Assembly: GCF_030406325.1 (NCBI RefSeq)
Contig: NZ_JAUEQY010000008.1
Span: 248,001 to 312,000 of the forward strand
DNA: 64,000 nucleotides
Source of the DNA: Actinomadura sp. DC4
GTDB taxonomy: Bacteria; Actinomycetota; Actinomycetes; Streptosporangiales; Streptosporangiaceae
Direction: 5' to 3'
Shown here piece after piece: positions 27,574 to 45,589 of the stretch; the stretch's first letter is position 1, and each line of letters begins with the position of its first letter. A program made the position numbers and the translations under genes. The notes beneath the pieces were generated by a model. It saw nothing but the letters and a program-made list of their open reading frames with translations. It did no database searches and had not been told where the DNA came from.

Positions 27574-28746
27574 TCAGGCGGTCGGGGAAACGCGAATCGC
27601 CTCGACCCAGGCCGGCGGGGGTGACGCGCCCGCGCCGATGAGCGCGGCGATGAGGCGGGACGACGACGGTGCCTCGGGCCACGGAGTGAACCCGTCCGTC
27701 AGCACGATCACGACGCCGGGCCGCTCGGGCAGGGCGAGGGCGGCCCGGATGCCGACGCGCATGTCGGTGCCGCCGCCGCCGGTGAGCGTGACCTGCTGTG
27801 CGGACGTCACCCGGGCCGCCGTCTGCACGTCGGCGTCGCAGGCGAGCACGGTGATCCGGTTGCCGCCGACGCCGACCTCCCGCAGCACGCCGGTGACCTC
27901 CGCGAGGGCCTCGGCGAGGTCGTCCTTGCCCATCGACCCGGAGGTGTCGATGACGATCGCGACGGCCGGCAGCGGGCGGCGCAGGCTCGGCAGCACGACG
28001 CCGCGCAGCGCGGCGGTGCGGCGGGACGGGCGGCGATAGGTGTAGTCGACCGCCCCGGCGGCCCAGGCGACCGCCTCCCGTACGGCGCCCGCGAGCACGC
28101 GCCGCCAGTCGACCGTCGGTTCGAGGATCTCGTTCGCCCAGCGTTGCCAGCCGCCCGGGAGGGAGCCGCGGTTGCGCTGGTGGGCGCGCATCGCCTCGGC
28201 GGTGTGCCGGCGCAGCGCCTCGGCCTCGACCGTGCTGACGCCACCGGGCTCTGCGGCGATCTCCCAGTCACCCGGCGAGCCGTGGGCGCCGGAGCCGCAG
28301 TCGGAGCAGACGACCGACGGAGGAAGATCGGGGAGGTACTCCTCGAACAGCCGCCCGGTCGCCAGCCCGAAGGCGCCGGGCTCCACCCGGCCCTCCGGCA
28401 GCGCCAGCCCGTCGGCGAGCAGGTCGTCGTTGATCTCGCAGTCCTGGGCGACGTTCACGCGCGGCCGGTCGCGCTGGTCGGCGGCCGCCAGCCGGTCCGT
28501 ACGGCCGTGGTGGTCGCGCAGCAGGTGCGCCACCTCGTGGATCCAGACGCCCGCGAGCTCGGGAACGGGCGTCGCCGCGACGAACGCCGGTGACACGTAG
28601 CACCGCCAGTGCCGGTCGACGCCCATCGTCGGCACGCCGTCGCTCGGCACGACCGTCAGGGAGTACAGCGCCGATGCGAGGTACGGCCGTTCGTTCGCGG
28701 CGCGGTACCGCGCCGCGAGCAGCTTGACCCGGTCGAGCTCGGCCAT
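27574..28746 (-). CDS. vWA-like protein with HEVAH metallopeptidase-like domain (DUF2201 type)
   Basis: 390 aa, two regions. Residues 1-150 carry HEVAH at 70-74 in a putative zinc-peptidase-like domain, and CSDC at 147-150, which may bind another metal. Residues about 255-385 form a von Willebrand A-like domain with MIDAS motif DTSGSMG at 267-273, a Thr in GGGGTDMRVG and an Asp in VIVLTDGF. vWA proteins of this type are partners of MoxR AAA+ ATPases, and the MoxR gene is 3 nt upstream. It is the last gene of the minus-strand operon that begins with the SDR-like gene. The pair probably remodels or activates a target; which one is unknown. Confidence 0.85.
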   Translation of the reverse strand: MAELDRVKLLAARYRAANERPYLASALYSLTVVPSDGVPTMGVDRHWRCYVSPAFVAATPVPELAGVWIHEVAHLLRDHHGRTDRLAAADQRDRPRVNVAQDCEINDDLLADGLALPEGRVEPGAFGLATGRLFEEYLPDLPPSVVCSDCGSGAHGSPGDWEIAAEPGGVSTVEAEALRRHTAEAMRAHQRNRGSLPGGWQRWANEILEPTVDWRRVLAGAVREAVAWAAGAVDYTYRRPSRRTAALRGVVLPSLRRPLPAVAIVIDTSGSMGKDDLAEALAEVTGVLREVGVGGNRITVLACDADVQTAARVTSAQQVTLTGGGGTDMRVGIRAALALPERPGVVIVLTDGFTPWPEAPSSSRLIAALIGAGASPPPAWVEAIRVSPTA

Positions 28747-28749
28747 GGG

Positions 28750-29970
28750 TCAGGAGCCGCCCGGCAGGGCGCCCGACAATCGGAGCAGGTCGAGGAACGC
28801 GTCGATGCCGTCCGGGACCGGCCAGCGGGTGTCGCGCAGGGCGGCCAGGTCCGCGGCGGCCCGGGCGGCGACGTCGGGTATTCCGGCGTCGACGGCCTTG
28901 GCCAGCACCGCCCAGCCCGCCTCCCAACGCCGCCGCGTGAGGTCGCTCTGCACCGCCGAGACGACGGCCGTCAGGAAGGCGAGCTGCCGATCGCCCCGTT
29001 TCGGCAGCGCGAACGCGGCCGGATCGGCCAGGACGCGGTCCGGGTCGGGCAGGTCGAGCTGTTCGAGGTAGGTCAGCAGCTCCAGCCCCGCGCCGTCGCC
29101 GACCGCGCCGATCACCGCCGCCGCGACCGCCTTCTGGTCCGCGTCGGCGGCGTACCCGACCGCCAGCAGCCGCAGCGCCATCTCCCAGGTGCGCGGCGAC
29201 GGCCAGGCGCCACCCCGGCTCTCCGCGTCGCCGGGCAGGTGGTGAGCCAGGCCGGGCCGGGCGGTGAGGAACCCGGAGATCACCCCGCGGGCGCGCGCGA
29301 CCGCACTGGGCACCCGGGCCGGGTCGACGATCGGTACGGGCACGGCCGGCCAGGTCCCGGCCATGCCTCGCGCGACCGTACGCGGGTCGTGCGTCCACCG
29401 CAGGTGCACGAACCGGTTCGCGAGCGGCGGGCTGAGATGCCAGCCGTCCGCCGCGCTGGACGGCGGGTTCGCCGCGGCGACCACCCGCACCGTTTCCGGC
29501 AGCGCCAGGCTGCCGACCCGCCGTTCGAGGACGACCCGCAGGAGAGCCGCCTGGACGGCGGGGGGAGCGGAGGACAGTTCGTCGAAGAACACCATGCCGC
29601 GCCCGGCCACGGACAGCCGTACCGCCCAGTCCGGCGGCGCCATCGGCACTCCGGTGGTGGCCGGATCGGCACCGATGATCGGCAGGCCGGCGAAGTCGGA
29701 CGGCTCGTGCACGCTGGCGATCACCGTCTCCAGCGGGACGCCGAGGCCGGTGGCCAGTTGCTGGAGGCCGGCGGACTTGCCGATCCCCGGCTCGCCCCAG
29801 AGCAGCACGGGCAGGTTCGCGGACACCGCGAGCGCCAGCGCCTCCAGCTGCGGGTTCGCGGCCGGCTCCGTACGCGGGGACGTGAGCCGGCGGCCCAGCT
29901 CGTCGGCGGCGGCCAGCGGGTCGGTCGCGGAGCCCTCATCGGCGGCGTTCAGCGGTCCTCGTCCTTTCAC
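28750..29970 (-). CDS. MoxR-type AAA+ ATPase
   Basis: 406 aa. Walker A is GEPGIGKS at residues 59-66, Walker B is MVFFDE ending at 131, sensor 1 is RVVAAANPPSS, and an arginine-finger region is ANRFVHLRW. A helical C-terminal lid follows. MoxR ATPases act as chaperones with vWA proteins, encoded here immediately downstream. The GTG start overlaps the stop of the ankyrin gene (GTGA at 29967-29970), so its synthesis is coupled to the ankyrin protein. Confidence 0.9.
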   Translation of the reverse strand: MKGRGPLNAADEGSATDPLAAADELGRRLTSPRTEPAANPQLEALALAVSANLPVLLWGEPGIGKSAGLQQLATGLGVPLETVIASVHEPSDFAGLPIIGADPATTGVPMAPPDWAVRLSVAGRGMVFFDELSSAPPAVQAALLRVVLERRVGSLALPETVRVVAAANPPSSAADGWHLSPPLANRFVHLRWTHDPRTVARGMAGTWPAVPVPIVDPARVPSAVARARGVISGFLTARPGLAHHLPGDAESRGGAWPSPRTWEMALRLLAVGYAADADQKAVAAAVIGAVGDGAGLELLTYLEQLDLPDPDRVLADPAAFALPKRGDRQLAFLTAVVSAVQSDLTRRRWEAGWAVLAKAVDAGIPDVAARAAADLAALRDTRWPVPDGIDAFLDLLRLSGALPGGS

Positions 29971-31607
29971 GACAGTGAGTCCAGGTCCAGATCGGTGCGC
30001 TTCCAGATGCGGATGAGATCGTGGAGCGACCGGCCCTCGTCGTCGATGACGTCGGGGTGTGCTCCGGCGGCCAGCAGCGCCCGGACCAGCGAGGCGGAGC
30101 CGTTGTCCCCGACCGCCACGTGGAGCGCCGTACGCTGGTTGTGGTCCACGGCCTCGAGGTCGACTCCGGCCTCCAGCAGCCGCGGCAGCAGGATCTCGTG
30201 GTCCAGGTGGATCAGGGCGTGCAGGAGCGTACGGCGCCGCCCGTCACGGAAGCGCGGGTCGACCCCGGCGTCCAGCAGTGCCAGGACTCCGGGTGTGTCA
30301 CCGTGCTGGACGCGGGCGTACAGCTCCCGCCGCTGCTCCTTGAGGGCCTTCGGCAGCCGGCCTTCGCCGGAGGTCATCGCCTGCGCCACGGCGAAGCACC
30401 CGGCGACCGCCCCGCCGAACGCCCGCATCGCCTGCTCCCGCCGCTGCTCGTCCTCGCTGTGCGGCATCCCCAGCGCGCCGTCCTGGAAGCACACCTCGTG
30501 CCACTCGCCCCGGCACCGTACGCGGACCGGGGCCGGGAGCTGCGGATCCGGCGGTCCGGCCGGGCCGGCGGGGTCCTCCCGCAGGGGGAAGAGCGCGGCA
30601 CGGACCAGCGGGTGCAGCCGGTCCGGATCCGCGTCGCCCTGCCGGAGCACGTCGAGATCCGGCAGCCGCCGCCAGGCCGCCTCGGGCAGTATCGGCGTAC
30701 CGCCGGTCTCCTCGGAGCGGACCGCCCGGACCAGCAGGCCGCGGTCCCGTTCCCGGTTCTCCAGCAGCACCCCGCTGCCCCAGAAGCACCGGATCAGGAA
30801 GCGACGCCCGATGCCCTCCTCGGTGAGCCGCCGGACCTCCGGCTCCAGCGTGGTCAACGCCAGAGCGGGTTTTTCCAGGACCCGCCGCATGGTGATCTCG
30901 CCGTACCAGTTGAACACGAGCGGTGCCGGGTCCAGCTCGATCCCCGCCGCGGCGAACGCCGCCTCGATCTCGCCGCGTTCGTGCAGCGACGTGACCCATT
31001 CGGCGTGGGCCGCCGGGTCGGCGGGACCGGGGTCGGCGGTGGGCAGGTCCCCGGCGGCGCGCGAGGTTCCATCCGCGTCGAGGAACGGTGGCCGGTCCCC
31101 GCCGCCACAGCGTTCCAGCAGCGCACCGGTGTGCCGTACGTCCCACAGATGCCGCAGCGTGCTCCAGTGATGGACGCCTGAGATGTCGGCATGGTCGATC
31201 CGGCCGTAGGACAGGCGCAACCGCTGCGGCCCGTCCGCCATGGTGGGCGTGGTGACGTGGAGGTACCGCGCGCCGGCGTAGCCGCGCAGTGCGATCGTCA
31301 GGCCGGTGCGCATCGTCGTACGCCCTCCCAGGATGCGTGGCAGATGCCAGCGCAGCAGGTCGGGCGCGAGATGGAGGAGGTCGTCCTCGACCGCGCCGCG
31401 ATGCCTCCGGGGGAGGTCGGCCAGGTCGAACGCCACCTCGACGTTCGCGGCGGCACAGGCACCGCGCCAGTCCCCGGCGAGGCGCCGCTCCGTGGCCCGC
31501 TCGATCATCCACCGGGGCACGGCGTACCGCAGGATCCGCCGGCGGCTCGACGCCTCGTCCGGTGGATACGTCCGCGTAAGGCGCGGCGGGGAGTCGATGG
31601 CGTTCAC
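29967..31607 (-). CDS. Ankyrin-repeat protein A with conserved N-terminal domain
   Basis: 546 aa, start GTG at 31607 overlapping the stop of its paralogue (GTGA). The N-terminal part begins YPPDEASSRRRILRYAVPRW and contains ERRLAGDWRGACAAANVEVA, nearly the same as in the next gene. A middle region (about 60-380) has DLLHLAPDLLRWHLPRILGG and VRVRCRGEWHEVCFQDG. Ankyrin repeats occupy about 410-530 (DGRRRTLLHALIHLDHEILL, NQRTALHVAVGDNGSASLVR, ALLAAGAHPDVIDDEGRSL). Cytoplasmic, no signal peptide. The N-terminal and middle domains are not recognised. The ankyrin part suggests protein binding, perhaps as adaptor or substrate receptor for the MoxR/vWA pair. Confidence 0.85.
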   Translation of the reverse strand: MNAIDSPPRLTRTYPPDEASSRRRILRYAVPRWMIERATERRLAGDWRGACAAANVEVAFDLADLPRRHRGAVEDDLLHLAPDLLRWHLPRILGGRTTMRTGLTIALRGYAGARYLHVTTPTMADGPQRLRLSYGRIDHADISGVHHWSTLRHLWDVRHTGALLERCGGGDRPPFLDADGTSRAAGDLPTADPGPADPAAHAEWVTSLHERGEIEAAFAAAGIELDPAPLVFNWYGEITMRRVLEKPALALTTLEPEVRRLTEEGIGRRFLIRCFWGSGVLLENRERDRGLLVRAVRSEETGGTPILPEAAWRRLPDLDVLRQGDADPDRLHPLVRAALFPLREDPAGPAGPPDPQLPAPVRVRCRGEWHEVCFQDGALGMPHSEDEQRREQAMRAFGGAVAGCFAVAQAMTSGEGRLPKALKEQRRELYARVQHGDTPGVLALLDAGVDPRFRDGRRRTLLHALIHLDHEILLPRLLEAGVDLEAVDHNQRTALHVAVGDNGSASLVRALLAAGAHPDVIDDEGRSLHDLIRIWKRTDLDLDSLS

Positions 31608-33406
31608 TCTTCCTCGAGGAGTTCCGGGTGCTCGTGTTCGATCCGGTCCGCGATGAAGTCCAGCTCGTCGCGCTGGAGCAGGTTGATCAGCCGGTGGAGC
31701 GACACGTCCTCGCCGTGGATCTCGCCGGTCACGTCGATCCGAGCCCCGGCGTCGAGCAGTGCCCGTACGAGCGCCACCGAGCCGTGGCCGCAGATCGCGG
31801 CGAACAGCGGCGTGCGGTTCTCCGCGTCCGTGGCGTCGATGTCCAGGCCCGCGGCCAGCAGACGGGCGAGCAGGCCGTCGTGGTCGAGGTGCCGCAGCCG
31901 GTGGGCCAGCTCGCGCCGCAGGCGGCCGTGTACGTCCGGATCGGCGCCGGTGTCGAGCAGGTGCAGCATGTGGAGCAGGGTGCGCCGCCGGCCGTCGCGT
32001 ACGCGCGGATCCACGCCGCTGTCCAGCAGCCGCAGGACCCCGGGGAGGTCGCCGTGCTGGACCCGCGAGAACAGCTCTCTCCGCCGGTCGCGCAGGGCCT
32101 TGGGCAGCCGCCCCGTTCCGGAGGTCCACGTGTGGCCTACGGCGAAGCAGCCGGCGACCGCGCCGCCGAACGCCCGCATGGCGGTCTCCCGCTGCTGCTC
32201 CTCCGCGCTGTGCGGGATGTCGAGGCGGCCGTCGCGGAAGGAGACCTCGTGCCACTCGCCCCGGCAGCGGACCCGTACGGGCTCGGAGCGTTCCGGATCG
32301 GGCGGCCGCACCGGGTCGCCGGCGCGACCCGGGGTCAGGGCGTCGCGGACCAGCGGGTGCAGCCGCTCGGGCGGGTAACCGTCCCGCAGGAGGTCCAGAT
32401 CGGGCAGGCGGCGCCAGGACGACTCGGGCAGCACCGCGTCCCCGGGCTCCGAGCCCATCTCGAACTCGACGATCCGTACGCGCAGCCCCGATCCACCGCT
32501 CTCGAAGGAGAGCGCCGCGTACTGCCGGTAGGGGATCCAGAACCGGCCGGTTCCCAGTGCCGCCGAGAGACGGCGGACCTCCGTCTCCACCCGGGCCAGG
32601 TCGAGGGGCATGCGCGCGAGAACGTCGAGCGGGTCGACGCCGTTCACGCTGTAGGACGGATCGACCTCGACCGGCGCGGCGTCCAGCTCGATGCCGGCGG
32701 CCGCGAACGCCGCCTCGACCTCGCCGCGCTCGTGCAGCAGCGTGACCCATTCGGCGAACGCCGCCGGATCGGCGCGGCCGGGGTCCTCGGCCGGAAGCTC
32801 TTCCGCCGAACGCGGCGTGCCGTCGCCGCGCAGGAACGGGGCGCGGTCCTCGCCGCCGCCGCAGCGTTCCCGCAGCTCGCCGGCGTGGCGCACGTCCCAC
32901 AGGTGACGTGACGTGCTCCAGTCCTGGACGACGTTCCGCCAGAACGCGCAGTAGGCCCAGTCGGTCTCCAGGTAGGCGCCCCCGCCGGGGACCGGCCCGG
33001 CGCGCAGGGACAGCCGCTGCGGGCCGTGGACCATCCAGTGAGGTGTCCACAGGTACAGGCGGGGAGCCTCCGGGTGCCCGCCCGGCCGCCCCAGGACCAT
33101 CACCTGGTCGGGCACGATCGTCGTACGCCCGCGGTCCAGGCGGGGCAGGTGCCAGCGCAGCAGGTCCGGGGCGAAGTGGGACAGGTCGTCCTCGACCGCC
33201 GCCGCGACGGCGTCGCCGTGGGTGTTCGCGACGTCGGCCAGGTCGACGGCGACATCGATGTTGGCGGCGGCGCAGGCGCCGCGCCAGTCGCCGGCGAGGC
33301 GCCGTACGGTCGCCTGCTCGATCATCCACTCGGGCACCGCGTACCGCCGGATCCGCCGCAACCGCGATGCCTCGTGCGGCGGATACGAACGGGAGGTGGC
33401 GCTCAC
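31604..33406 (-). CDS. Ankyrin-repeat protein B, paralogue of protein A
   Basis: 600 aa, GTG start at 33406 overlapping the LRR gene stop (GTGA). The layout is the same as protein A: N-terminal YPPHEASRLRRIRRYAVPEW and RRLAGDWRGACAAANIDVAV, middle DLSHFAPDLLRWHLPRLDRG and VRVRCRGEWHEVSFRDG, and C-terminal ankyrin repeats (GRRRTLLHMLHLLDTGADPD, ENRTPLFAAICGHGSVALVR). It has an additional insert before the ankyrin part and about one more repeat. The proteins are clearly homologous but diverged, so this is an old tandem duplication with two retained functions, not a recent copy. Confidence 0.85.
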   Translation of the reverse strand: MSATSRSYPPHEASRLRRIRRYAVPEWMIEQATVRRLAGDWRGACAAANIDVAVDLADVANTHGDAVAAAVEDDLSHFAPDLLRWHLPRLDRGRTTIVPDQVMVLGRPGGHPEAPRLYLWTPHWMVHGPQRLSLRAGPVPGGGAYLETDWAYCAFWRNVVQDWSTSRHLWDVRHAGELRERCGGGEDRAPFLRGDGTPRSAEELPAEDPGRADPAAFAEWVTLLHERGEVEAAFAAAGIELDAAPVEVDPSYSVNGVDPLDVLARMPLDLARVETEVRRLSAALGTGRFWIPYRQYAALSFESGGSGLRVRIVEFEMGSEPGDAVLPESSWRRLPDLDLLRDGYPPERLHPLVRDALTPGRAGDPVRPPDPERSEPVRVRCRGEWHEVSFRDGRLDIPHSAEEQQRETAMRAFGGAVAGCFAVGHTWTSGTGRLPKALRDRRRELFSRVQHGDLPGVLRLLDSGVDPRVRDGRRRTLLHMLHLLDTGADPDVHGRLRRELAHRLRHLDHDGLLARLLAAGLDIDATDAENRTPLFAAICGHGSVALVRALLDAGARIDVTGEIHGEDVSLHRLINLLQRDELDFIADRIEHEHPELLEEE

Positions 33407-34539
33407 CGGTAGAGGCTTCCGATCGCGTGCAGGTCCGGATGGGGCCGGGCGGCGGGACGGAGGCGCGGCGCGAGCGCCCGCTTCACCCGGCGGGGCACGC
33501 CGGGGCCGAAGCCGACGTACTCCAGACGGGTGTCGTCGGGAACGGCGTCCAGCAGGGTCTTGGCGCCACGGCCGGTGACCCCGGTACGGCGCAGCTCCAG
33601 CCGCCGCAAGGGGCTGCCGGGCAGCGCCGCGGCCAGCGCGGCCGCGCCCGTGTCCCCGGTGGCGTTCGCGGGCGCGCCGAGACTCCGCTCGGACGGCGGA
33701 CGCCCCAGGTCGAGCGCCTCGATGCCGCCGAGGGCGTCGGCCAGCGCGCGGGCGCCGTCCGGGCCGATGCCGTTGCCGCCGAGGCCCAGGCGTACGGGCC
33801 GGGCGGGGTCGGCCGCCGCGGCGAGGGTCGCCACGCCGGCGTCGCCGAGATGGTTCGCCGGAAGGTAGAGCTCGCGGACGCCCGCGTCCCGGATCAGCGC
33901 GGCCAGCAGGTCCGCCGACTCCGTTCCCAGCCCGTTGCCGCCGACGAACAGCCGCTCGACGGGTTCCGGCCGCTCGGTGAGCACGGCCAGCAGCACCCGC
34001 AGTCCGTCCCGGGTGAGCCCGGTGTTGACCAGGTCGAGGGTGCGGACCGTCGTGTTCCGCCGCAACATCGCGGCGAGCGCGCGGGCTCCGGCGTCGCCCA
34101 CCGGGTTCCGCTTGAGCCATACCGCCCGTACGGTCGCGTCCCCGGCGAGGCGGTCGGCGAGCGCCCCGGCACCGTCCGCGTCGATGCGGTTGCAGCCGAG
34201 GTACAGCGTCTCCAGGCCGTGGCCGGGGACGAGCGAGCCGGCGACGGCCCGTGCCCCGTCGCTCCCGATGGCGTTGGTGCCGAGGAGCAGATGGACGGCG
34301 TGCGGCGAGGTCGTCGCGACCGGGAGCAATCGCGCGGCCCCGGCCGGGCCGAGGCCCTGCTTGCACAGGTCGACCCGGCCGCCGGGCCGTACGGTGCCGA
34401 GCGGGAAGGTCTCGTCGCGCGTCACCGGGGCCTCACCGGCCAGCCGCGCGAGCAGCGGGTCGAGGTCCGCCGGATCGGCCGGCGGCACGTCGGGGTGCTC
34501 GATCGCGGGGCAGCGTACGGGCGTCGGCTCCATCATCAC
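33403..34539 (-). CDS. Leucine-rich repeat protein (ribonuclease-inhibitor type)
   Basis: 378 aa. About ten LRRs of the RI type run through residues 55-330, with recurrent units such as LETLYLGCNRIDADGAGALA, VERLFVGGNGLGTESADLLA, VRELYLPANHLGDAGVATLA and PVRLGLGGNGIGPDGARALA. The final repeat is LRRLELRRTGVTGRGAKTLL, followed by a basic, Pro-rich tail. No signal peptide, so an intracellular protein-binding solenoid. The start is taken at GTG 34539 because it overlaps the SDR-like gene's stop as GTGA, the pattern of the other junctions in this operon; TTG 34542 and ATG 34536 are alternatives. Confidence 0.83.
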   Translation of the reverse strand: MMMEPTPVRCPAIEHPDVPPADPADLDPLLARLAGEAPVTRDETFPLGTVRPGGRVDLCKQGLGPAGAARLLPVATTSPHAVHLLLGTNAIGSDGARAVAGSLVPGHGLETLYLGCNRIDADGAGALADRLAGDATVRAVWLKRNPVGDAGARALAAMLRRNTTVRTLDLVNTGLTRDGLRVLLAVLTERPEPVERLFVGGNGLGTESADLLAALIRDAGVRELYLPANHLGDAGVATLAAAADPARPVRLGLGGNGIGPDGARALADALGGIEALDLGRPPSERSLGAPANATGDTGAAALAAALPGSPLRRLELRRTGVTGRGAKTLLDAVPDDTRLEYVGFGPGVPRRVKRALAPRLRPAARPHPDLHAIGSLYR

Positions 34540-35939
34540 CAATCCACCGGTCGGTAGTCCTTCAGGAACAGGCCGGCCATCCGGTCGCCGCCGACACCGC
34601 GCACGATCGGGTCATAGACCCGGGCGGCGCCGTCGATGACGTCCAGCGGCGGCCGGAACCCCGCCTCCCGCTGCGCGGTCTTGTCCGGGTGGGGGCGTTC
34701 GTCGGTGACCCAGCCGGTGTCCACGCTGTTCATGTGGATACCCGAGGCCGCGTAGTCGGCGGCGGCCGTACGGGTCAGCATGTTCAGGGCGGCCTTGGCC
34801 ATGTTGGTGTGCGGGTGGCGGACGGTCTTGTACTCCCGGGAGAAGCTGCCCTCCATCGCCGAGACCTGCACGACGTACCGGTCCGGGCTCCTCGCGGCCT
34901 CCAGCAGGCCGCGCAGCCGCGACGTCAGCAGGAACGGCGCGAAGGAGTTCACCAGTTGCACCTCCATCCACTCGGCCGGGTCCACCTCGTGCAGCCGGAG
35001 ACTCCAGCTGTTGCGGTCGCGCAGGTCGAGCGGCTGACCGGTCTCGTCCGTACGGCCTGCGGGGAACAGCGCCTCCACGGGCTTCGCCGGGACGGGTGCG
35101 TGGCCGGCGGCCGGTATCGCCCGGATCGGCGTGTCCGCCACGTCGATCCGGGCGGTCGGGCCGGTCAGGGGGACGCTCTCCGCCGCACGGACCTCACGGT
35201 GGTACGCGGCGGGCCGCCGGATCGTCTGGGCCGCGTTGTTGACGAGGATGTCGAGAGAGTCGAACCGCTGGTGGACGGCCTCCAGGAGACCGGCCACGGC
35301 CGCCACGTCGAGCAGGTCGACCCCGTGAACGTGCACCCGATCCAGCCACTCTCCGGCGTCGGGCACGGCGGCGAACCTTCGTGCGGCGTCCCGGGGGAAA
35401 CGGGTGGTGACCAGGACCTCCGCGCCGTCGCGCAGCAGCTTCAGCGCCAGCTGAAAACCGATCTTCACCCGGCCACCGGTCACGACCGCCCGGCGGCCGC
35501 TCAGATCGCACCGGGCGTACCGGCGGGCCAGATTCTCCTCGGCGCAGTCCGGGCAGAGCAGGTGGTATTCGGGATGCACTCGCCCGTAGGCGGCCTTGCA
35601 GACGTAACAGGACCGCGTCCCCGCCAGCGAACGCCACGCCGTCGCGGGCCGACCCTGGTCGGCCGCCGGGCCGGGATCCTGCTCCCGGTAGCGGACCGAG
35701 CCCGCCGTGGCCACCTGATCACGCCGCCTGCGTTCGGCGTGCCGCGCCGCCTTGCGCGCCTTCTTCCCCGCCCGGTACAGCTGCGCCGCGGCCTCGTGCA
35801 CGGCCGCCCACCGGGGATCACCGGGTTCCGCCGCGCGGGCCTGGGCCATGATCTCCAGGCAGGCCGCGATCTCAGCCGGGGCGCCTTCGCCGGGCGAGGG
35901 CGTCTCAGCCAGGTCGGTATCGACCACCGCCACCGACAC
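34536..35939 (-). CDS. SDR-like protein with N-terminal CxxC zinc-ribbon and missing catalytic Tyr
   Basis: 467 aa, first gene of the operon. Residues 1-100 are helical and basic. CYVC and CPDC about 20 residues apart suggest a zinc ribbon. From about residue 150 a Rossmann fold begins, but the usual TGxxxGIG is TGGRVKIG. NNAA and a Ser-containing VVQVSAMEGS are present. Where YxxxK is expected the sequence is TNMAK (in PHTNMAKAALNM), so the catalytic Tyr is replaced by Thr. It may bind a nucleotide without classical dehydrogenase chemistry. The start is GTG at 35939. A tRNA-like element lies just upstream. Confidence 0.8.
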   Translation of the reverse strand: MSVAVVDTDLAETPSPGEGAPAEIAACLEIMAQARAAEPGDPRWAAVHEAAAQLYRAGKKARKAARHAERRRRDQVATAGSVRYREQDPGPAADQGRPATAWRSLAGTRSCYVCKAAYGRVHPEYHLLCPDCAEENLARRYARCDLSGRRAVVTGGRVKIGFQLALKLLRDGAEVLVTTRFPRDAARRFAAVPDAGEWLDRVHVHGVDLLDVAAVAGLLEAVHQRFDSLDILVNNAAQTIRRPAAYHREVRAAESVPLTGPTARIDVADTPIRAIPAAGHAPVPAKPVEALFPAGRTDETGQPLDLRDRNSWSLRLHEVDPAEWMEVQLVNSFAPFLLTSRLRGLLEAARSPDRYVVQVSAMEGSFSREYKTVRHPHTNMAKAALNMLTRTAAADYAASGIHMNSVDTGWVTDERPHPDKTAQREAGFRPPLDVIDGAARVYDPIVRGVGGDRMAGLFLKDYRPVDW

Positions 35940-35964: not shown

Positions 35965-36039
35965 GGGCAAGGCTGGTCGGATTCGAACCGACGTCCTCCA
36001 ACCCGCTGTAAGGCGCGACGACCTCTGCGCTACAGCCTT
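35965..36039 (-). tRNA. tRNA-like sequence, probably degenerate
   Basis: Read on the minus strand, AAGGCTG pairs perfectly with CAGCCTT as a 7-bp acceptor stem (extendable to 10 bp). GCGC/GCGC forms a D stem, and GTCGG-TTCGAAT-CCGAC is a canonical T arm. No CCA is encoded. Only 20 nt lie between the D and T stems, and they do not fold into a 5-bp anticodon stem with a 7-nt loop, so no anticodon can be assigned. It may be a pseudo-tRNA, an attachment-site relic or an unusual tRNA. The rest of the gap to the helicase gene (36040-36188) shows nothing. Confidence 0.45.
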
Positions 36040-36188
36040 GCCGCGGCAGAGCCTAGCGAAGAGGGCGGACATTTCATGGCAAATAGACGGCGAACCATTC
36101 GCTCGGACCAACCCGTAGGCGTGCGTCAGAACTCCTCCCACCGGACCTGGTCCGGATGACCAGCGGCCATCCGGTGGATATCTCGGAG

Positions 36189-37529
36189 TCAAACGGCGCG
36201 TACGCGGTGGTCGGACAGGTGGGCGAGGATCGCCTGGTTGGCCTCCCAGCCGTCGGGGAACTTGGCCGGGACGTTCAGATGGACCGGTTCGGTGGAGGGA
36301 TGGGCGTCGAGGAGGTCGGCGATGCCGGCGCGGGCCACGACGATGCAGGACTGCCGGTGGCGGGACGCGAGCACGCACAGCCGCCCGGCTTCGAGGTGGA
36401 ACGCGGTGGCGTCGCGGCGGCCCGACAGGGGATGGACCACGATCGTGACTTCGAACTCCCGGCCCTGCAGCCGGTTCGCGGTGTCCACGGTGATCTGCGC
36501 CGCGCCGGGGATGCGTGCGAGCGCCCGGCGGATCTGGTCGGCCTGGTCGCGGTGGGCGACTCCGATCGCGATGCGCGACGGGCCGATGTCCTGGCCTCCG
36601 GGACGGCGTTCGCAGACGCCGACCGCTCCCAGGGTCAGCAGGCGTGCGGCGATCTGGGCCGCGGCGTCGGCGGCCTCCGCGTCGGTGCGCAGCGTATGGC
36701 GGGCGGGCAGTTCGTGGAGGGCCCAGCCCGTACGGGCGGCCATCGCCAGGGTCTCATCGACCGCGCTCCCGAACCCGGCCGCGGTGAACTCCAGGCGGCG
36801 CGTGCCGTCGGCGGTGGCCGCGCTGAAGCCGGCGAACGGATAGAACGCGGCGGAGACGATCGGGGCCGCCGAGGAGGGAAGCCGCCAGGAGACCGGGAGG
36901 CGGTGCGGCGGGGCCAGCTCGGGGTTCTGGGCGAGCACCACGGCCACCGCGCTCTGCATCGGGTCGTACGGCAGGCCGATCCAGCGTGAGGTGTCGATGA
37001 TCGAGAACGGGTCCAGCTGCCCGGGATCACCGACGAACAGGGCGCGTTCGAAGCGGCCGGCGATGGACAGCAGCATGTCGGAGCGCATCTGGTACGCCTC
37101 GTCCACGATCGCCCAGGCCCAGCGGTGGTCCTTCACGGTGGCCCATTTGGCCGCGGTGGCCAGCACCACGTCGGCGTGGCCCAGGTCGTCCGCCTTCCGG
37201 GCGATCGTGATGTTGGGCAGGGCCAGCAGGGGGGCCGGTGCGGTGTACTCCGTGGCCGACAGGCGGCCGATGCGCAGCGTCGGATGCTCGGCGGCGAGCC
37301 GTAGGACGAGGTCGTCGATCTGGTTGTTGGTCTGCGCGACGATCATGCAGCGCTCGCCGCCCTCGACCAGCGTGATCGCGGCCCGTACGACGAGGGTGGT
37401 CTTTCCCGCGCCCGGCGGGGAGTCGACGACGAGGCCGCGCCGGGGACCGGCCGCCATGGTCGCCATGTCGGCGAGGATCGTCCGTACGGCGGTCTCCGCC
37501 GCGGCCACCGGATCGGCGATGCTCACCAT
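36189..37529 (-). CDS. SF1 (UPF1/DNA2-like) helicase/ATPase
   Basis: 446 aa. Helicase motifs appear in order: I (Walker A) SPPGAGKTT about 37-45, Ia AQTNNQIDDLV, II IVDEAYQMR about 141-149, III GDPGQLDPF, IV GVAHRDQADQIRRAL, V VDTANRLQGREFEVTIVVHP and VI LCVLASRHRQ. It is compact for the family, without large accessory insertions. ATG at 37529 overlaps the upstream stop by 7 nt, and a GTG at 37526 gives a GTGA overlap. It is the last gene of a four-gene operon with a RecB-like Fe-S nuclease, so a coupled DNA or RNA unwinding and cleavage role is likely, perhaps in phage defence. Confidence 0.85.
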   Translation of the reverse strand: MVSIADPVAAAETAVRTILADMATMAAGPRRGLVVDSPPGAGKTTLVVRAAITLVEGGERCMIVAQTNNQIDDLVLRLAAEHPTLRIGRLSATEYTAPAPLLALPNITIARKADDLGHADVVLATAAKWATVKDHRWAWAIVDEAYQMRSDMLLSIAGRFERALFVGDPGQLDPFSIIDTSRWIGLPYDPMQSAVAVVLAQNPELAPPHRLPVSWRLPSSAAPIVSAAFYPFAGFSAATADGTRRLEFTAAGFGSAVDETLAMAARTGWALHELPARHTLRTDAEAADAAAQIAARLLTLGAVGVCERRPGGQDIGPSRIAIGVAHRDQADQIRRALARIPGAAQITVDTANRLQGREFEVTIVVHPLSGRRDATAFHLEAGRLCVLASRHRQSCIVVARAGIADLLDAHPSTEPVHLNVPAKFPDGWEANQAILAHLSDHRVRAV

Positions 37530-39025
37530 GACTCCTCGACACCGTCGTCACGGGAATCGTTGAGGGCCGGCGGGCCGCCGTGCGTCCACGGCGTCTCCTC
37601 GATCGGCGGGAACTCGCGCGGGCTCGACCAGCCGGGGTCGTGGGTGTAGAGGACCTCGTCGCCGCGTTCGGGCACGGCCTCGGTGCGCGGTTTGCCGGGT
37701 GTGCCCATCCCGCTGGTCACCTCCAGGACGACCAGCCAGGCGTCGTCGTCCTGGGTGACGCTGGAGATCCGCACTTTGTCCTTGGGGCGTTCCGGGCGGA
37801 CGACCGGGCTCCCGGGTTCGATGCGCATCGGGTCATCCGTACGGACGGTGAACCGGGGCCGTAGCATGGGGCGGCCCTTGTCGCTGGCCGAGGTCCGCGT
37901 CGGCTCGCGGTCCACGACCGTACCGCCGAAGGCCTCGCCGACGGTGCGGAGCTCGGCCATGACGAACGGGTCCTCCAGCGCACGTTGCGCGTCGTACGCG
38001 GCCTGCGCGCGCTCCAGGCGGTGCAGCCGGGCGGCCGCGGTGGTCGCACGGTCGCGGCTCGGCTGAGGCCGCCCGCCCCCGGCGACGTAGGCGCTGAACG
38101 AGGTGAACTCCTGCCGGTCGAACCGCCACCGGGTCTCCGCGCTCGGCGCCTCGCCGATGGCGCGTAGCCGGTCGATTCCGCGCCACATCAGGTCCCAGGT
38201 CGGCCTCAGCTGAGTCTTCAGCTCACGGGACAGGGCGGCGACGGCTCGCTGGACGGCGCTCGGATCGCCGCCGTTGACGGCCTGTTCGTACCTCTCGATG
38301 GCCGGATTGAGGATCACTCCGTCGAACCCCGGATCGGTGGCCGGCCCCGCCGGCGGACACTGGAGCGGGTCCTCGGCGACCCGCGCCGCCTGCAGCCCGC
38401 TCATCCCGGCGGGCGGGTCGATCCAGCCGAGCAGCGCCGCGAGGTTGGCGTCCTCCAGCGGGCTCTGCCCGGTGGCCCACTGCGCCCTCAGCAGGTCGGT
38501 CAGGGGCAGGAGCATGGCCGAGTCGGGGTGCTCGGCGCGTTCGGCCAGGAAGGTCAGCCACTGGCCGAGCAGCGGGACCGAGGCGTCGACCGGGTTGGGT
38601 CCGTCGGCACGCCGGAACCGGGTCGACCGGCCCAGGAGCCCGAGGTAGGACAGGGCCACCCGGTTGGGGACGATCGTCTGCGGAGCGTCGAGGTAGATGT
38701 CCTGTTCCTCGCGGTTCCTGGTCGCGGGCAGGGCCTCGGTCTGCGCCCGGCACGCCTCGATGTAGGGCATGACGATTCGGGCCAGGTCGGCGAAGAAGCC
38801 GAAGCGCAGCCCGCGGTTGCGCGGCTGCGGCACGGTCAGCAGCGTCGGCTCACGGCGGTCGGTGCCGACCATCGCGGCGAGCGGAGCGGCCGCCTCTCCG
38901 GCGAGGTTCAACGGCACGATGACCAGCGGCCGGTCGGAGAGGTGCCGGTGCCGTACGGTGCTGAGGCGCTCGGCGTGCCCGGTCTGTGCCGCGTTCAGGT
39001 GGGCCAGCGTGGTGAGCAGGGTCAT
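37523..39025 (-). CDS. Unidentified 500-aa protein of the helicase-nuclease operon
   Basis: I do not recognise the family. The ATG at 39025 overlaps the nuclease gene stop (ATGA at 39022-39025). The N-terminal half is alpha/beta (LVIVPLNLAGEAAAPLAAMV, LRFGFFADLARIVMPYIEAC). A middle part is helical (AVAALSRELKTQLRPTWDLM, ARLHRLERAQAAYDAQRALE). A C-terminal beta-rich domain (about 400-490) contains PRFTVRTDDPMRIEPGSPVV and DDAWLVVLEVTSGMG. No catalytic signature, signal peptide or membrane segment is seen. It is translationally coupled on both sides, so it is probably a structural or targeting subunit of the same complex. Confidence 0.75.
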   Translation of the reverse strand: MTLLTTLAHLNAAQTGHAERLSTVRHRHLSDRPLVIVPLNLAGEAAAPLAAMVGTDRREPTLLTVPQPRNRGLRFGFFADLARIVMPYIEACRAQTEALPATRNREEQDIYLDAPQTIVPNRVALSYLGLLGRSTRFRRADGPNPVDASVPLLGQWLTFLAERAEHPDSAMLLPLTDLLRAQWATGQSPLEDANLAALLGWIDPPAGMSGLQAARVAEDPLQCPPAGPATDPGFDGVILNPAIERYEQAVNGGDPSAVQRAVAALSRELKTQLRPTWDLMWRGIDRLRAIGEAPSAETRWRFDRQEFTSFSAYVAGGGRPQPSRDRATTAAARLHRLERAQAAYDAQRALEDPFVMAELRTVGEAFGGTVVDREPTRTSASDKGRPMLRPRFTVRTDDPMRIEPGSPVVRPERPKDKVRISSVTQDDDAWLVVLEVTSGMGTPGKPRTEAVPERGDEVLYTHDPGWSSPREFPPIEETPWTHGGPPALNDSRDDGVEESW

Positions 39026-40179
39026 GCCGCGCCGCCCAGGAGCGCGTCCCGTAGGCGGGCGGCGTGCCGCAGCGCACGGGTGACCTCCCGCTGGTCCGCC
39101 GAGGGAGCGCGCTTGCCCCGGGCCAGGTCGAGCGCCGTACCGATCGTGTCCAGACCTCCGAGGTCGTCGCGTACGGTCGGCCCGAGCACGTCGACGGACT
39201 GGGCGGTGCGTGCCTCGTCGCGGCAGAAGCCTGCGAGCTCGCAGTTGGCCAGGCAACTCGGCTGGTAGCGGGAGTCCACGCTGCCGAGCGCGTCGACGAG
39301 TTCCTCGCTCGGGCGGGTGGGCGTGCCGTCGGCGTCCGGCGCGAGGTCGAGGGTGACGCCGTCCGGCAGCGCGTCCAGCAGTGTGTCGATACGGGTCAGC
39401 CGGGACAGCTGGCGGCGTACGACGTCGATCTGCTGGCGCGCGTCGATCATCGTGGCGGTGGCGCGGAAGGAGAAGTTCTCCGGCGTCACCAGGATGACGT
39501 CGTGGGAGACCGCCTCGGGGGGCACGCCCACCTCGGCCAGCAGTTCGCGCAGCGCGAGGATGTACACGGCGGCCTGCTTGGTGGCGGCGGCGACCTGGTC
39601 TCCGTCCGCCTGACCGTCGATGACCGCGAACGACTTGATCTCGATGACGTGGAACCGGCCGCCGAGCTGGAAGGTGACCACATCGGGTTCGAGGAAGACG
39701 TCGTGGCCGCCGACCCGGAGCCGCAGCATAGGGTGGTCGAACAACGTGCGCGGTTCGTCGCCGTCGCTCTGCGCGGCCTGCAGCAGCTCGTTGCGGGTGC
39801 GCCGGTAGCGGACGTTGCGGTCGACCAGGTCACCGACGACGTCGAGCGGGATGTAGGAGACCTCCGGGATGGGCAGCGCGAGCTTGTCCCGCAGCAGCCG
39901 CAGGAGCTCGGCACAGCCGTTCGCCTTGACCTGAGCCTCGAACGCGTTGCCGTGGGCGAGCGCGAACGGGGACATTCCAAAGGGAGCGGGGAAACCCGTC
40001 TGGGCGGCGATCCGTGTCTTGTCGACACCGGCGGCGTCCATCACGGCGCGGCGTCCGCATCCGGGGTTGATGGTCAGTGCGGCCACGGCGCGCGCGTTGT
40101 AATTGAGCGGCCGGACAGTCCCACGCAGTGCGTCGAGTCGGTCATCTAGGGGATTCACGTCGGTCCTTGGGGAAGTCAC
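39022..40179 (-). CDS. PD-(D/E)XK nuclease with Fe-S cluster (Cas4/AddB-like)
   Basis: 385 aa, GTG start at 40179. Nuclease residues: E81 region (HGNAFEAQ), Asp166 in FLEPDVVTF, E180-I-K182 in FHVIEIKSF, and Q202-x3-Y206 (QAAVY), the RecB-family QxxxY motif. Cys41 in the N-terminal part together with Cys309, Cys313 and Cys319 (PSCLANCELAGFC) gives the split four-Cys arrangement that holds a [4Fe-4S] cluster in Cas4 and AddB-type nucleases. No cas genes or CRISPR repeats are nearby. The gene lies between the coiled-coil and 500-aa genes, so it probably works with the SF1 helicase encoded in the same operon. Confidence 0.83.
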   Translation of the reverse strand: MTSPRTDVNPLDDRLDALRGTVRPLNYNARAVAALTINPGCGRRAVMDAAGVDKTRIAAQTGFPAPFGMSPFALAHGNAFEAQVKANGCAELLRLLRDKLALPIPEVSYIPLDVVGDLVDRNVRYRRTRNELLQAAQSDGDEPRTLFDHPMLRLRVGGHDVFLEPDVVTFQLGGRFHVIEIKSFAVIDGQADGDQVAAATKQAAVYILALRELLAEVGVPPEAVSHDVILVTPENFSFRATATMIDARQQIDVVRRQLSRLTRIDTLLDALPDGVTLDLAPDADGTPTRPSEELVDALGSVDSRYQPSCLANCELAGFCRDEARTAQSVDVLGPTVRDDLGGLDTIGTALDLARGKRAPSADQREVTRALRHAARLRDALLGGAA

Positions 40180-43255: not shown

Positions 43256-45589
43256 TCATCGTCCCAGGAAGCGTGCGATAGCGGATGCGCGACCCGTCCC
43301 ACGAATCGGGAAGATCCGGCTCTTGGGAGAGTTGAAGGTCGAGAGCCGGCGCCGCAAATCCTCTTCTCCTGGCAGATCGAGCTCCGACAGGATCTCCAGC
43401 CCATGGCGCCAGGTCTCCTTGGCTTCTCGGGTCATCCCGGAGTTGGCGTACACTTCACCCAGATAACGAAGGCTGGCGGCTTCGGCGGGGAAGTTGCCGA
43501 CGACACCGTAAAGACGTATTGCTTGGTTATATGCGTCGATTGACTTAGCGTATTCACCTAGCTTGGCGTAGGCGTAGCCGAGGCTGTCCAATGTGTCCGC
43601 CTCGCCCTGGCGGTCGCTGAGTGAGCGGAGTAACTCGAGTGCGCGTTCGCAGATCATGACAGCCTCGGCGTGGCGTCCAAGGAGTGTGTAGCACCAGCCT
43701 TCGGCGTTCAGCCCGCGCGCCGCGCCGCTCGGGTCATTCGCCAACTGGTAAAATGGAAGAGCGAGCTTGACGAGCCTCAGTTCCTCTTCGTAGTTTTGCG
43801 TCGCCTCCTCTAGGAGCGCGAGATGATGGTGACCGCGAGCCTGCTCGCTCCAGTCCTCGATGGACGCAGAAAGCGACAGCGCGTGGACGAAATCCGCACG
43901 GGCCGCGGCGTAATTTCCGAGCTTTAGATGAGCTCTCCCCAGCCATCTTCTCGTGAACGCCTGCCCTTGGACGTCGCCACTTCTCTCTGCGGCTCTGTAC
44001 GCCGTCTGCATTGCGACGACAAGCTTCTGCCAGTGAGTATTCCGGTCGATCGAGTCGCCTACTGCCCAGGCGATCTGCCAGGCATAGGTGTCGAGCGACT
44101 CCGCGTAAGCGACACTGATCACTTCAAGGAGAAGCAGATAGTTCTTGTCGAGCCAGCTCGCGGCATCGCCGTACGTGGAAAACTTCTCCGCCGTCACCTT
44201 GCCGACCGGCTCCTGTATATGGATTCGAGCGCGCAGCGGATTATTCATGGCAGATGCGGAGCTCGCACTTTGGAGATAGTAATCGACCATGCGCTGCCGT
44301 GCTTCGGTGACGGCGGCGGCGGTACTCTCGGTATTGCGAAGCCCGATGGAGAACTCACGTATCAAGTCGTGGAATATGTATTCATCGGATGCGGTCCGTA
44401 TTATCATGTAAACGTTGCTCAGCTCGCTGAGCTGCGATGTCGCATCATCGATGGTCACGCCAAGGATCCCGGCTGCGGCCGCCGGGGTAAAGGGAAAGGC
44501 GGGATGCAGGCTCAGCAGACGGAAGGTGCTTGCATGTCTGCTGTCCAGTGTGTCGTACGACCAGAGAAACACGGATTCGGTTCCGGGCTCAGCTTGTGGG
44601 TCGCTGCTCAGGCCGCGCCGGGAGCGGCGGATTTCGTCGGCGATCCGCGCGAGTGGAGTGGTAGGTGTCCTGGCTGCCCTGGCGCTGACTATTGTCAGCG
44701 CCAGGGGAAGGCGCGCGCAAAGTTCGACGAGGTCGTCCAGTGCGCGAAGGTTCGCCTTGACCCTGCTGCTGCCAAGATGGCTGGCGACAAGGCCCTTCGC
44801 CTCTTCATGGGACAGCAGACTCAGAGATATCGGGCGTACGTCTCCCATCTTGTCGATACGGCCGAGGTGTTTACGGCTGGTGATAACGGTCATGCTGGTT
44901 GAACTCGGCGGCAGCAGAGGTATGATCTGTTCTTCGTCCCGTACGTTGTCCAGGACGACGAGTATCCGTCTTCCCGACAAGAGTTTCACATAGATCTTTC
45001 TTAGGCCGGCGAGATTCAGGTGTAACGATGTCCGCTCCATTCCCAGGGCGCCCAAGAGTCTGATAAGAGCTTCTCGGGGAGCCACGGGTGCTTCCAGTGA
45101 AAATCCTTGAAGATCAACGTAGAGCTGTCCGTCGGGATAGTAGTCGCGGATCATGTTTGCCCACTGAACGGCCAGCGCGGTCTTCCCGACACCGGCCATT
45201 CCGTGGATTGCGGCGATCGTTATTATTTCGGCGTGAGAATGAGGGTTGATGAGCGCCCATAGGCGGTCCAGCTCCTTATTGCGGCCTACGAAGTGACGCG
45301 ATGCCGCCGGAAGTAGATCGAGGATCGAATATTCTGGTCCCTCGTTTCGTGCCGGTGAAGAGATCGAGGTGTGGCGGCTGTTTCTTGTGTGGGAAATGGA
45401 CTCTGCTGCTACGGTGAGAAAACCGCCGAAGATAATAAAGGCGGTGCCGAGTAGATATTCGCCACGCTGGACGATGATTCCCGCAATTCCTGCGGTGATA
45501 ACACTGAGGCCGACTATTGTGGGGGCGAACGAGCGTCCGTGTTTGAGTTTTGTGCGGCGTGGCCGGGAACTCGGTAATAGCATTCTCAC
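43256..45589 (-). CDS. Membrane-anchored NB-ARC/TPR protein
   Basis: 777 aa. Two hydrophobic segments near residues 20-65 (IVGLSVITAGIAGIIVQRG and LLGTAFIIFGGFLTVAA) should anchor it in the membrane. NB-ARC follows with HFVGRNKELDRLW, Walker A GMAGVGKT, ILVVLDNV (Walker B region), VITSRKH and LCARLPLALTIV. The C-terminal 300 residues are TPRs (GRAHLKLGNYAAARADFVHA, GYAYAKLGEYAKSIDAYNQA). This is the AfsR/SARP-like NB-ARC plus TPR layout without a DNA-binding domain. Start GTG 45589 or ATG 45583. Base composition is clearly less GC-rich than neighbouring genes, suggesting recent acquisition. Confidence 0.87.
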   Translation of the reverse strand: MRMLLPSSRPRRTKLKHGRSFAPTIVGLSVITAGIAGIIVQRGEYLLGTAFIIFGGFLTVAAESISHTRNSRHTSISSPARNEGPEYSILDLLPAASRHFVGRNKELDRLWALINPHSHAEIITIAAIHGMAGVGKTALAVQWANMIRDYYPDGQLYVDLQGFSLEAPVAPREALIRLLGALGMERTSLHLNLAGLRKIYVKLLSGRRILVVLDNVRDEEQIIPLLPPSSTSMTVITSRKHLGRIDKMGDVRPISLSLLSHEEAKGLVASHLGSSRVKANLRALDDLVELCARLPLALTIVSARAARTPTTPLARIADEIRRSRRGLSSDPQAEPGTESVFLWSYDTLDSRHASTFRLLSLHPAFPFTPAAAAGILGVTIDDATSQLSELSNVYMIIRTASDEYIFHDLIREFSIGLRNTESTAAAVTEARQRMVDYYLQSASSASAMNNPLRARIHIQEPVGKVTAEKFSTYGDAASWLDKNYLLLLEVISVAYAESLDTYAWQIAWAVGDSIDRNTHWQKLVVAMQTAYRAAERSGDVQGQAFTRRWLGRAHLKLGNYAAARADFVHALSLSASIEDWSEQARGHHHLALLEEATQNYEEELRLVKLALPFYQLANDPSGAARGLNAEGWCYTLLGRHAEAVMICERALELLRSLSDRQGEADTLDSLGYAYAKLGEYAKSIDAYNQAIRLYGVVGNFPAEAASLRYLGEVYANSGMTREAKETWRHGLEILSELDLPGEEDLRRRLSTFNSPKSRIFPIRGTGRASAIARFLGR

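What the first reader, a model, noticed from the sequence alone, without database searches (positions are those of the whole stretch)
27574..35939. Coupled operon: SDR-like, LRR, two ankyrin proteins, MoxR ATPase and vWA/HEVAH protein
Six genes in a row, with four consecutive stop/start overlaps from the SDR-like gene to the MoxR gene, all readable as GTGA, and only a 3-nt gap to the last gene. MoxR-vWA pairs are known remodelling machines, and here they are joined to two kinds of repeat scaffold proteins and a putative metallopeptidase domain. NTP-dependent MoxR-vWA conflict systems are known in multicellular bacteria; this composition may be an undescribed variant.
Basis: partly seen in the sequence, partly recalled or inferred. 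Interest (0 to 1): 0.72.

Follow-up and report, generated by a model that had tools for sequence, protein, structure and literature searches.

The report
tRNA-mimic RNA heads MoxR-vWA operon
Soil bacteria related to Streptomyces carry a conserved gene cluster for an ATP-driven protein-remodelling machine that starts with a tRNA look-alike RNA gene, a pairing I could not find described and whose job is not yet known.

Summary
The six-gene operon is real at the stated coordinates: four GTGA overlaps and a 3-nt last gap. Among loci chosen by the LRR protein alone (best 80 of 172 relatives), 80 of 80 have such an RNA upstream (65-97 bits), and 73 of 80 hold ANK, MoxR and DUF2201/vWA too. The RNA shows strong covariation, keeps tRNA-type D- and T-loops, has a 9-bp acceptor stem and an anticodon arm that mostly cannot form the canonical stem-loop. 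A -10-like box precedes it in 80 of 80. The SDR is optional (29 of 80); 39 of the 51 loci without it keep a scar of its end. Flanking DNA differs between many loci. Motifs suggest an active MoxR ATPase with a vWA-metallopeptidase partner. I infer an RNP conflict or quality-control machine that senses the tRNA mimic; function is untested. PADLOC has no matching system; ten paper searches showed no description.

The parts
36050..36055 (-). -10-like box TAGGCT, 8 nt before the first base of the RNA
   Evidence: TANNNT ends 7-10 nt before nt 1 in 80 of 80 related loci; 55 of 16000 random positions
35967..36041 (-). tRNA-like RNA gene, 75 nt, 9-bp acceptor stem, degenerate anticodon arm
   Evidence: ARAGORN tRNA-Cys(aca) at 35965-36040; Rfam tRNA 41.4 bits; model R1 84.1 bits, the 20 other matches listed in the same genome 62.5 or less; covariation
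34536..35939 (-). SDR-like protein, 467 aa, N-terminal four-Cys motif, catalytic Tyr place taken by Thr
   Evidence: Pfam adh_short 3.2e-20; alignments; optional, 29 of 80 loci
33403..34539 (-). leucine-rich repeat protein, 378 aa
   Evidence: Pfam LRR_6 4.5e-16; 14-row alignment A2, 66-87% identity to the window protein
31604..33406 (-). ANK1: N-domain of about 430 aa without a family match, plus ankyrin repeats (600 aa)
   Evidence: Pfam Ank_4 2e-9; duplicate of ANK2
29967..31607 (-). ANK2: the same architecture, 546 aa
   Evidence: Pfam Ank_2 1.8e-9; AlphaFold2 model, mean pLDDT 92.0
28750..29970 (-). MoxR-type AAA+ ATPase, 406 aa
   Evidence: Pfam AAA_5 3.1e-7; Walker A and the Walker B DE conserved in 74 of 74 sequences, with one S to T at the last Walker A place
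27574..28746 (-). DUF2201 protein: putative HExxH metallopeptidase domain plus vWA domain, 390 aa
   Evidence: Pfam DUF2201_N 8.9e-34 and DUF2201 2.8e-18; H, E, H of HExxH and MIDAS D, S, S, T, D invariant in 74 of 74 sequences

Best explanation
What it is (shown by sequence): a chromosomal cassette of actinomycetes made of a tRNA-like RNA, an optional SDR-like protein, an LRR protein, one or two N-domain/ankyrin proteins, a MoxR AAA+ ATPase and a DUF2201 metallopeptidase/vWA protein. The RNA comes first, behind a promoter-like box, and the protein genes follow in overlapping or closely spaced order. How it probably works (inferred): the RNA folds as a tRNA mimic that is unlikely to decode, and the LRR and ankyrin proteins hold it or what binds to it. 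When the mimic is cut, modified or occupied, for example by an invader's or stress-activated tRNA-targeting enzyme, the MoxR-vWA pair uses ATP to remodel the complex and releases or positions the HExxH protease to limit the cell or the invader. The steps from 'the proteins bind the RNA' onward have no direct evidence.
For: RNA upstream of the LRR in 80 of 80 loci chosen by the LRR protein. Of 107 R1 matches in these 1.59 Mb, 96 of 65 bits or more lie within 2.6 kb upstream of the LRR, four lie about 3.3 kb upstream (three of these just ahead of an extra ankyrin gene), and the other seven, all in L216, are 57 bits or less. Class sample: 14 of 394 genomes have the main-clade LRR; 13 have the RNA beside it at E up to 2e-13, and the 14th has a weaker RNA (63 bits) beside an operon in which ANK and MoxR were not found and only vWA fragments remain. 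Covariation score 0.439 against at most 0.131 when slid. In 41 proximal copies aligned, the canonical inner anticodon pairs are broken in 33, 29 and 25 of 41, while an alternative inner pair set holds in 38 and 39 of 41. ATPase, MIDAS and HExxH residues conserved. Cassette in differing flanks. RNA and LRR distances correlate, Mantel r 0.57, 0 of 999 permutations as high.
Against: No evidence that any protein binds the RNA, that the RNA accumulates as a separate molecule, or that the locus protects against anything. Proximal anticodon arms are similar within genera, which is less than expected for a fast arms race. In the 69 of 80 loci with one copy a purely cis role is equally natural. A related N-domain-MoxR-DUF2201 operon exists without the RNA upstream, so the ATPase core can occur without it. 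Planotetraspora L219 keeps RNA, SDR and LRR without the machine. Single-sequence folding is weak evidence: z from -0.95 to -2.56 in four sequences, and the window RNA's minimum-energy fold is not the cloverleaf. PADLOC holds no such system.
Confidence: 0.38

Rival explanations
1. Cis-acting leader. The tRNA-like fold is the 5' end of the operon mRNA and controls its processing or translation, for instance through RNase P or RNase Z cleavage, so that the operon responds to the state of tRNA processing. The RNA has no partner among the proteins.
For: The -10-like box puts the likely start at or near nt 1 of the fold, and there is little room for a second promoter: 27 nt to the SDR gene in the window, 26-166 nt to the LRR in loci without an SDR. 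One copy within 2.6 kb in 69 of 80 loci.
Against: Two to six copies in 11 of 80 loci; 16 of the 20 further copies have their own -10-like box; solitary relatives of the RNA elsewhere in genomes, away from these genes; tRNA-type D- and T-loops kept beyond what a simple leader needs.
Confidence: 0.27
2. RNP scaffold for RNA quality control, working like Ro60 with Y RNA: the tRNA-like RNA tethers or gates the protein machine, which handles damaged tRNA or rRNA as a housekeeping or stress function rather than in conflicts.
For: Bacterial Ro60 proteins and Y RNAs are encoded in RNA-repair operons, and YrlA has a tRNA-like domain (passages of PMC7790460); that Ro60 also holds a vWA domain is recalled. 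No LRR relatives in the plasmid or phage collections.
Against: No Ro, RtcB or PNPase gene among the window proteins scanned; patchy distribution, 14 of 394 genomes of the class.
Confidence: 0.17
3. Protein-only MoxR-vWA maturation chaperone (as NorQ/NorD) or MoxR-vWA ternary conflict system; the RNA is a regulatory extra.
For: Conserved ATPase and MIDAS residues; a related N-domain-MoxR-DUF2201 operon without the RNA upstream.
Against: No client enzyme gene in the six-gene operon; the RNA is kept in 80 of 80 loci while the SDR comes and goes.
Confidence: 0.12
4. A true minor tRNA or aminoacyl donor used by the SDR-like protein or another partner.
For: ARAGORN calls tRNAs; of the upstream copies with a 17-nt arm, 9 of 15 have U33 and 10 of 15 five canonical pairs.
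Against: Operon-proximal copies: 7 of 67 17-nt arms have a canonical 5-bp stem and 3 of 67 have U33; 9-bp acceptor stem; the triplet in the loop differs between lineages.
Confidence: 0.04
5. A tRNA-type integration site that happens to lie beside a mobile cassette.
For: Flanks differ between many loci.
Against: 0 of 80 loci have a 20-nt exact repeat of the RNA's 3' half elsewhere in the fetched stretch; covariation and a -10-like box are kept; the window RNA matches 13 other tRNAs of its genome at 53 of 74 places or fewer (other tRNAs were not compared).
Confidence: 0.02

Closest known systems
MoxR-vWA ternary conflict systems (VMAP, iSTAND, FtsH, beta-propeller; Kaur et al. 2020, PMC7159879, passages seen)
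   Same: MoxR AAA+ ATPase plus vWA partner plus a third conserved protein; reported from multicellular bacteria including actinobacteria.
   Different: The third component here is an N-domain/ankyrin protein; 43 of them gave no Pfam match other than ankyrin repeats and five single weak hits. The vWA protein is of DUF2201 type with an HExxH domain; an LRR protein and a tRNA-like RNA are added. The words DUF2201 and ankyrin do not occur in that main text.
Ro60 (Rsr) and Y RNA in RNA-repair operons (PMC7790460, passages seen)
   Same: A small RNA with a tRNA-like domain encoded next to its protein machine.
   Different: No Ro, RtcB or RtcA gene in the operon here; the RNA here is a whole tRNA-like molecule with a 9-bp acceptor stem.
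NorQ/NorD and RavA/ViaA chaperone pairs (starts of abstracts in a search listing)
   Same: MoxR ATPase with a vWA partner.
   Different: No client metalloenzyme or decarboxylase gene in the six-gene operon; repeat proteins, HExxH domain and RNA instead.
Anticodon-nuclease arms race (phage tRNAs with altered anticodon loops; abstract of PMC10264068)
   Same: tRNA-shaped RNAs with changed anticodon loops.
   Different: Here the RNA is part of a bacterial chromosomal operon; no phage match at the sensitivity used.

Membership tests
MoxR-vWA pair (general) | MoxR-type AAA+ ATPase with intact Walker A and B next to a vWA gene | tested here: met
MoxR-vWA pair (general) | vWA domain with complete MIDAS motif | tested here: met
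   74 of 74 sequences, window included
MoxR-vWA ternary conflict systems (VMAP, iSTAND, FtsH, beta-propeller) | third component VMAP, inactive STAND, FtsH or beta-propeller | tested here: inconclusive
   43 ANK proteins scanned against Pfam gave ankyrin families and five single weak hits; profile-profile comparison not tried
MoxR-vWA ternary conflict systems (VMAP, iSTAND, FtsH, beta-propeller) | beta-propeller class only: MoxR of the bpMoxR family | tested here: not met
   PF20030 18.8 bits, cut-off 27
Known anti-phage systems in PADLOC-DB 2.0.0 | match to system proteins beyond generic ankyrin or AAA+ similarity | tested here: not met
   Only ankyrin and weak AAA+ similarities; no hit for SDR, LRR or vWA
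Canonical decoding tRNA | 5-bp anticodon stem, 7-nt loop with U33 | tested here: not met
   Proximal copies: 7 of 67 and 3 of 67 17-nt arms; the window arm has 16 nt and is identical to those of L182 and L184, which form 2 of 5 canonical pairs
tRNA-like fold | cloverleaf with covarying stems and conserved D- and T-loops | tested here: met
   thermodynamic folding alone is weak
Ro60-Y RNA system | TROVE/Ro protein gene | tested here: not met
   None among 20 window proteins scanned with Pfam; relatives' flanks were not scanned for it
Classical SDR oxidoreductase | catalytic Ser, Tyr and Lys | tested here: not met
   Ser and Lys 29 of 29, Thr at the Tyr place 29 of 29 (window plus 28 loci)
tRNA-targeted integrative element | direct repeat of the tRNA 3' end at the other boundary | tested here: not met
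   0 of 80 within the fetched stretches of at most about 21 kb; exact 20-mers only

The most novel reading that the evidence does not exclude
A new kind of RNA-armed AAA+ machine: a MoxR-vWA-metallopeptidase complex that carries its own tRNA mimic as bait, with tandem copies offering different anticodon loops, so that attack on tRNA-like RNA by an invader or a stress nuclease is converted by ATP-driven remodelling into proteolysis.
Probability: 0.3. Interest if true: 0.95.

Novelty: new variant of a known kind. Interest (0 to 1): 0.8.

Why it matters
MoxR-vWA machines are widespread but their triggers are mostly unknown (recalled). A fixed partner RNA shaped like a tRNA gives a concrete, testable trigger for one of them, and would link AAA+ remodelling systems to tRNA-targeted conflicts or tRNA surveillance in Streptomyces and relatives, which are easy to manipulate. 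It also means that some genes called as odd tRNAs by annotation programs in these genomes are parts of such operons.
Full report
Observation. The window holds six minus-strand genes as described, with four GTGA overlaps and a 3-nt last gap. Pfam names them SDR-like, LRR, two ankyrin proteins, MoxR-like AAA+, and DUF2201_N plus DUF2201, a putative metallopeptidase domain fused to a vWA domain. The two ankyrin genes are a tandem duplication; each has an N-domain of roughly 430 residues without a Pfam match in front of the repeats. PADLOC-DB has no corresponding system.

What was missed. ARAGORN and Rfam call a tRNA just upstream of the SDR gene. SDR relatives were found in 27 of 120 related genomes; of 28 SDR loci scanned, window included, 13 have one to three ARAGORN tRNA calls, with odd and changing anticodons. 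A pattern search found 22 such RNAs upstream of 13 SDR genes (one ordinary tRNA dropped). Nineteen of the 22 were aligned; with a 9-bp acceptor stem 94.0% of cells pair and the covariation score is 0.439, against at most 0.131 for slid versions. A covariance model, R1, scores the window RNA at 84.1 bits; the 20 other matches listed in the same genome are at 62.5 bits or less (150 of 18957 first-look candidates were scored). Twelve of those 20 were fetched and each holds an ordinary tRNA call at that place.

Test without selection on the RNA. A scan of named genomes with the LRR alignment gave 172 relatives, of which the best 80 were kept: Streptomyces, Kitasatospora, Actinomadura, Nonomuraea, Planotetraspora, Herbidospora, Actinoallomurus, Nocardiopsis and others. 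All 80 have an R1 match (65.3-97.4 bits) upstream of the LRR gene, either directly or upstream of the SDR. R1 found 107 matches in these 1.59 Mb: 80 proximal RNAs, 20 further copies upstream, and 7 of 37-57 bits in L216. ANK, MoxR and vWA are all found in 73 of 80. Of the seven exceptions, L239, L243 and L247 end with the contig and L242 with the fetched stretch, L214 and L219 (Planotetraspora) show none of the three genes, and L255 shows only ANK. In L199, L222 and L225 a second RNA sits just ahead of an additional ankyrin gene; L212 has a second RNA without one. L242 has six copies in a row.

Genome-level view. In 394 genomes of the class, 18 have an LRR match: 14 of the main clade (E below 1e-130) and 4 of a second clade. 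Of the 14, 13 have the RNA beside it at E up to 2e-13. The 14th, G414, has an RNA of 63 bits, not listed at that threshold and not called by ARAGORN, beside an operon in which ANK and MoxR were not found and only vWA fragments remain. The N-domain occurs in 40 of 394 genomes; by comparison, 28 of these 40 lack a main-clade LRR. Six loci of this sort were fetched with the N-domain beside MoxR and DUF2201 (L091, L093-L097), and R1 finds nothing in them at E up to 0.001; in a seventh, L263, there is a 39-bit match about 4 kb beyond the vWA gene, not upstream. So an N-domain-MoxR-DUF2201 core exists on its own, and the version with RNA, LRR and ankyrin repeats looks like an elaboration of it.

The RNA. 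On 41 of the 67 proximal copies with a 17-nt arm, the bases that correspond to U8, A9, G18 and G19 are invariant and the T-loop TTCGAAT nearly so. Variation lies in the acceptor stem, where it is compensatory, and in the anticodon arm. Of 67 proximal arms of 17 nt, 7 can form five canonical pairs and 3 have U33; 72 of all 80 can form two outer pairs, an internal loop, two inner pairs and a pentaloop. On the 41 aligned, the canonical inner pairs fail in 33, 29 and 25 of 41, and the alternative inner pairs hold in 38 and 39 of 41 with a few compensatory changes. Further upstream copies are more canonical: of 15 17-nt arms, 10 have five pairs and 9 have U33. Thermodynamic folding of four single sequences is only modestly better than shuffles (z -0.95 to -2.56), and the minimum-energy fold of the window RNA (folded one base short at the 5' end) is not the cloverleaf; the case rests on covariation. 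In five loci tested, Rfam reports only the tRNA family (33.6-57.6 bits).

Expression layout. TANNNT ends 7 to 10 nt before nt 1 in 80 of 80 loci, against 55 of 16000 random positions; this is a weak control, since most random positions are coding. The first coding sequence follows soon after the RNA. Hence the RNA is probably the 5' end of the operon transcript and is either processed out or stays as a leader; sequence cannot tell which. No RNA data were available.

Evolution. The SDR is present in 29 of 80 loci and in none of the Streptomyces loci among the 80. In 39 of the 51 loci without it, a reading frame before the LRR still ends in W-stop with the overlap to the LRR start, as the SDR does. 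Its catalytic Tyr place holds Thr in 29 of 29 aligned sequences, while Ser, Lys and four Cys are kept. At the threshold used (1.5 kb shared at 65% or more), upstream flanks have no partner in 37 of 76 loci and downstream flanks in 40 of 71, so the cassette is found in many places and the RNA goes with it. RNA and LRR distances correlate (Mantel r 0.57), as co-inheritance predicts. No LRR relative was found in the plasmid or phage collections, nor the RNA in phages.

Proteins. The HExxH and MIDAS residues and the core of Walker A and B are conserved in 74 of 74 sequences (window and 73 loci), with single substitutions at secondary places, as expected for an active ATPase with a metal-binding adaptor and a possible protease. 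AlphaFold2 gives a confident model of ANK2 (mean pLDDT 92.0); by the order of its elements the N-domain seems to hold two similar alpha+beta units. No solved structure matches that domain convincingly.

Mechanism. The repeat proteins, a tRNA-shaped RNA, an AAA+ motor and a putative protease fit best with a ribonucleoprotein that watches for something acting on tRNA. I put 0.38 on a trans-acting mimic as sensor or bait, 0.27 on a cis-acting leader, 0.17 on an RNA quality-control RNP and 0.12 on a protein-only machine. What is shown: the cassette, its RNA fold, its conservation and its layout. What is inferred: binding, triggering, proteolysis and the biological purpose.

Comparison and novelty. 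The engine belongs to the MoxR-vWA kind. The ternary systems described for that kind (PMC7159879, passages) are defined by other third components, and the words DUF2201 and ankyrin are not in that main text. Ten searches of an open-access library showed no paper that connects these parts. I therefore rate it a new variant of a known kind, with the RNA as the new element.

Noticed in passing
L147, L151, L154, L155, L158, L161-L163, L165 (near 10 kb of each): Solitary relatives of the tRNA-like RNA in f20/g85 genomes, eight of these nine with a Trp (CCA) call, without LRR, ANK or MoxR matches in the 20 kb fetched and next to assorted other genes.
   Followed up: partly
L073, L078, L086, L169, L170, L171, L173: A second SDR clade, in six of these seven with a divergent LRR (43-46% identity), preceded by one to three tRNA-like genes with mostly canonical-looking loops (Cys, Asp, Glu, Ala, Gly, Ser and others), without MoxR-vWA matches in the stretches fetched.
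   Followed up: partly
L091, L093-L097, L263: N-domain protein (open frames of about 430-470 aa where seen), MoxR and DUF2201 in a row without LRR or an upstream tRNA-like RNA: possibly an undescribed MoxR-vWA ternary core. Pfam was not run on these proteins.
   Followed up: partly
window 43256-45589: NB-ARC/TPR STAND-like protein on the minus strand about 7 kb from the operon.
   Followed up: no
window 36189-37529 and 37523-39256: AAA_11/AAA_12 helicase-like protein with partial similarity to PADLOC MkoA and NCBIfam PLuB models (far below the NCBIfam cut-off), overlapping a 577-aa ORF without Pfam match; 0 of 80 related loci have either.
   Followed up: partly
L103 (G000:C34:94685-95360): Array of seven tRNA genes in the window's own genome, including an odd Cys(aca) call.
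   Followed up: no
L242, 2635-3452: Six tandem tRNA-like RNAs upstream of the LRR in a Nocardiopsis, each with a different anticodon arm.
   Followed up: partly
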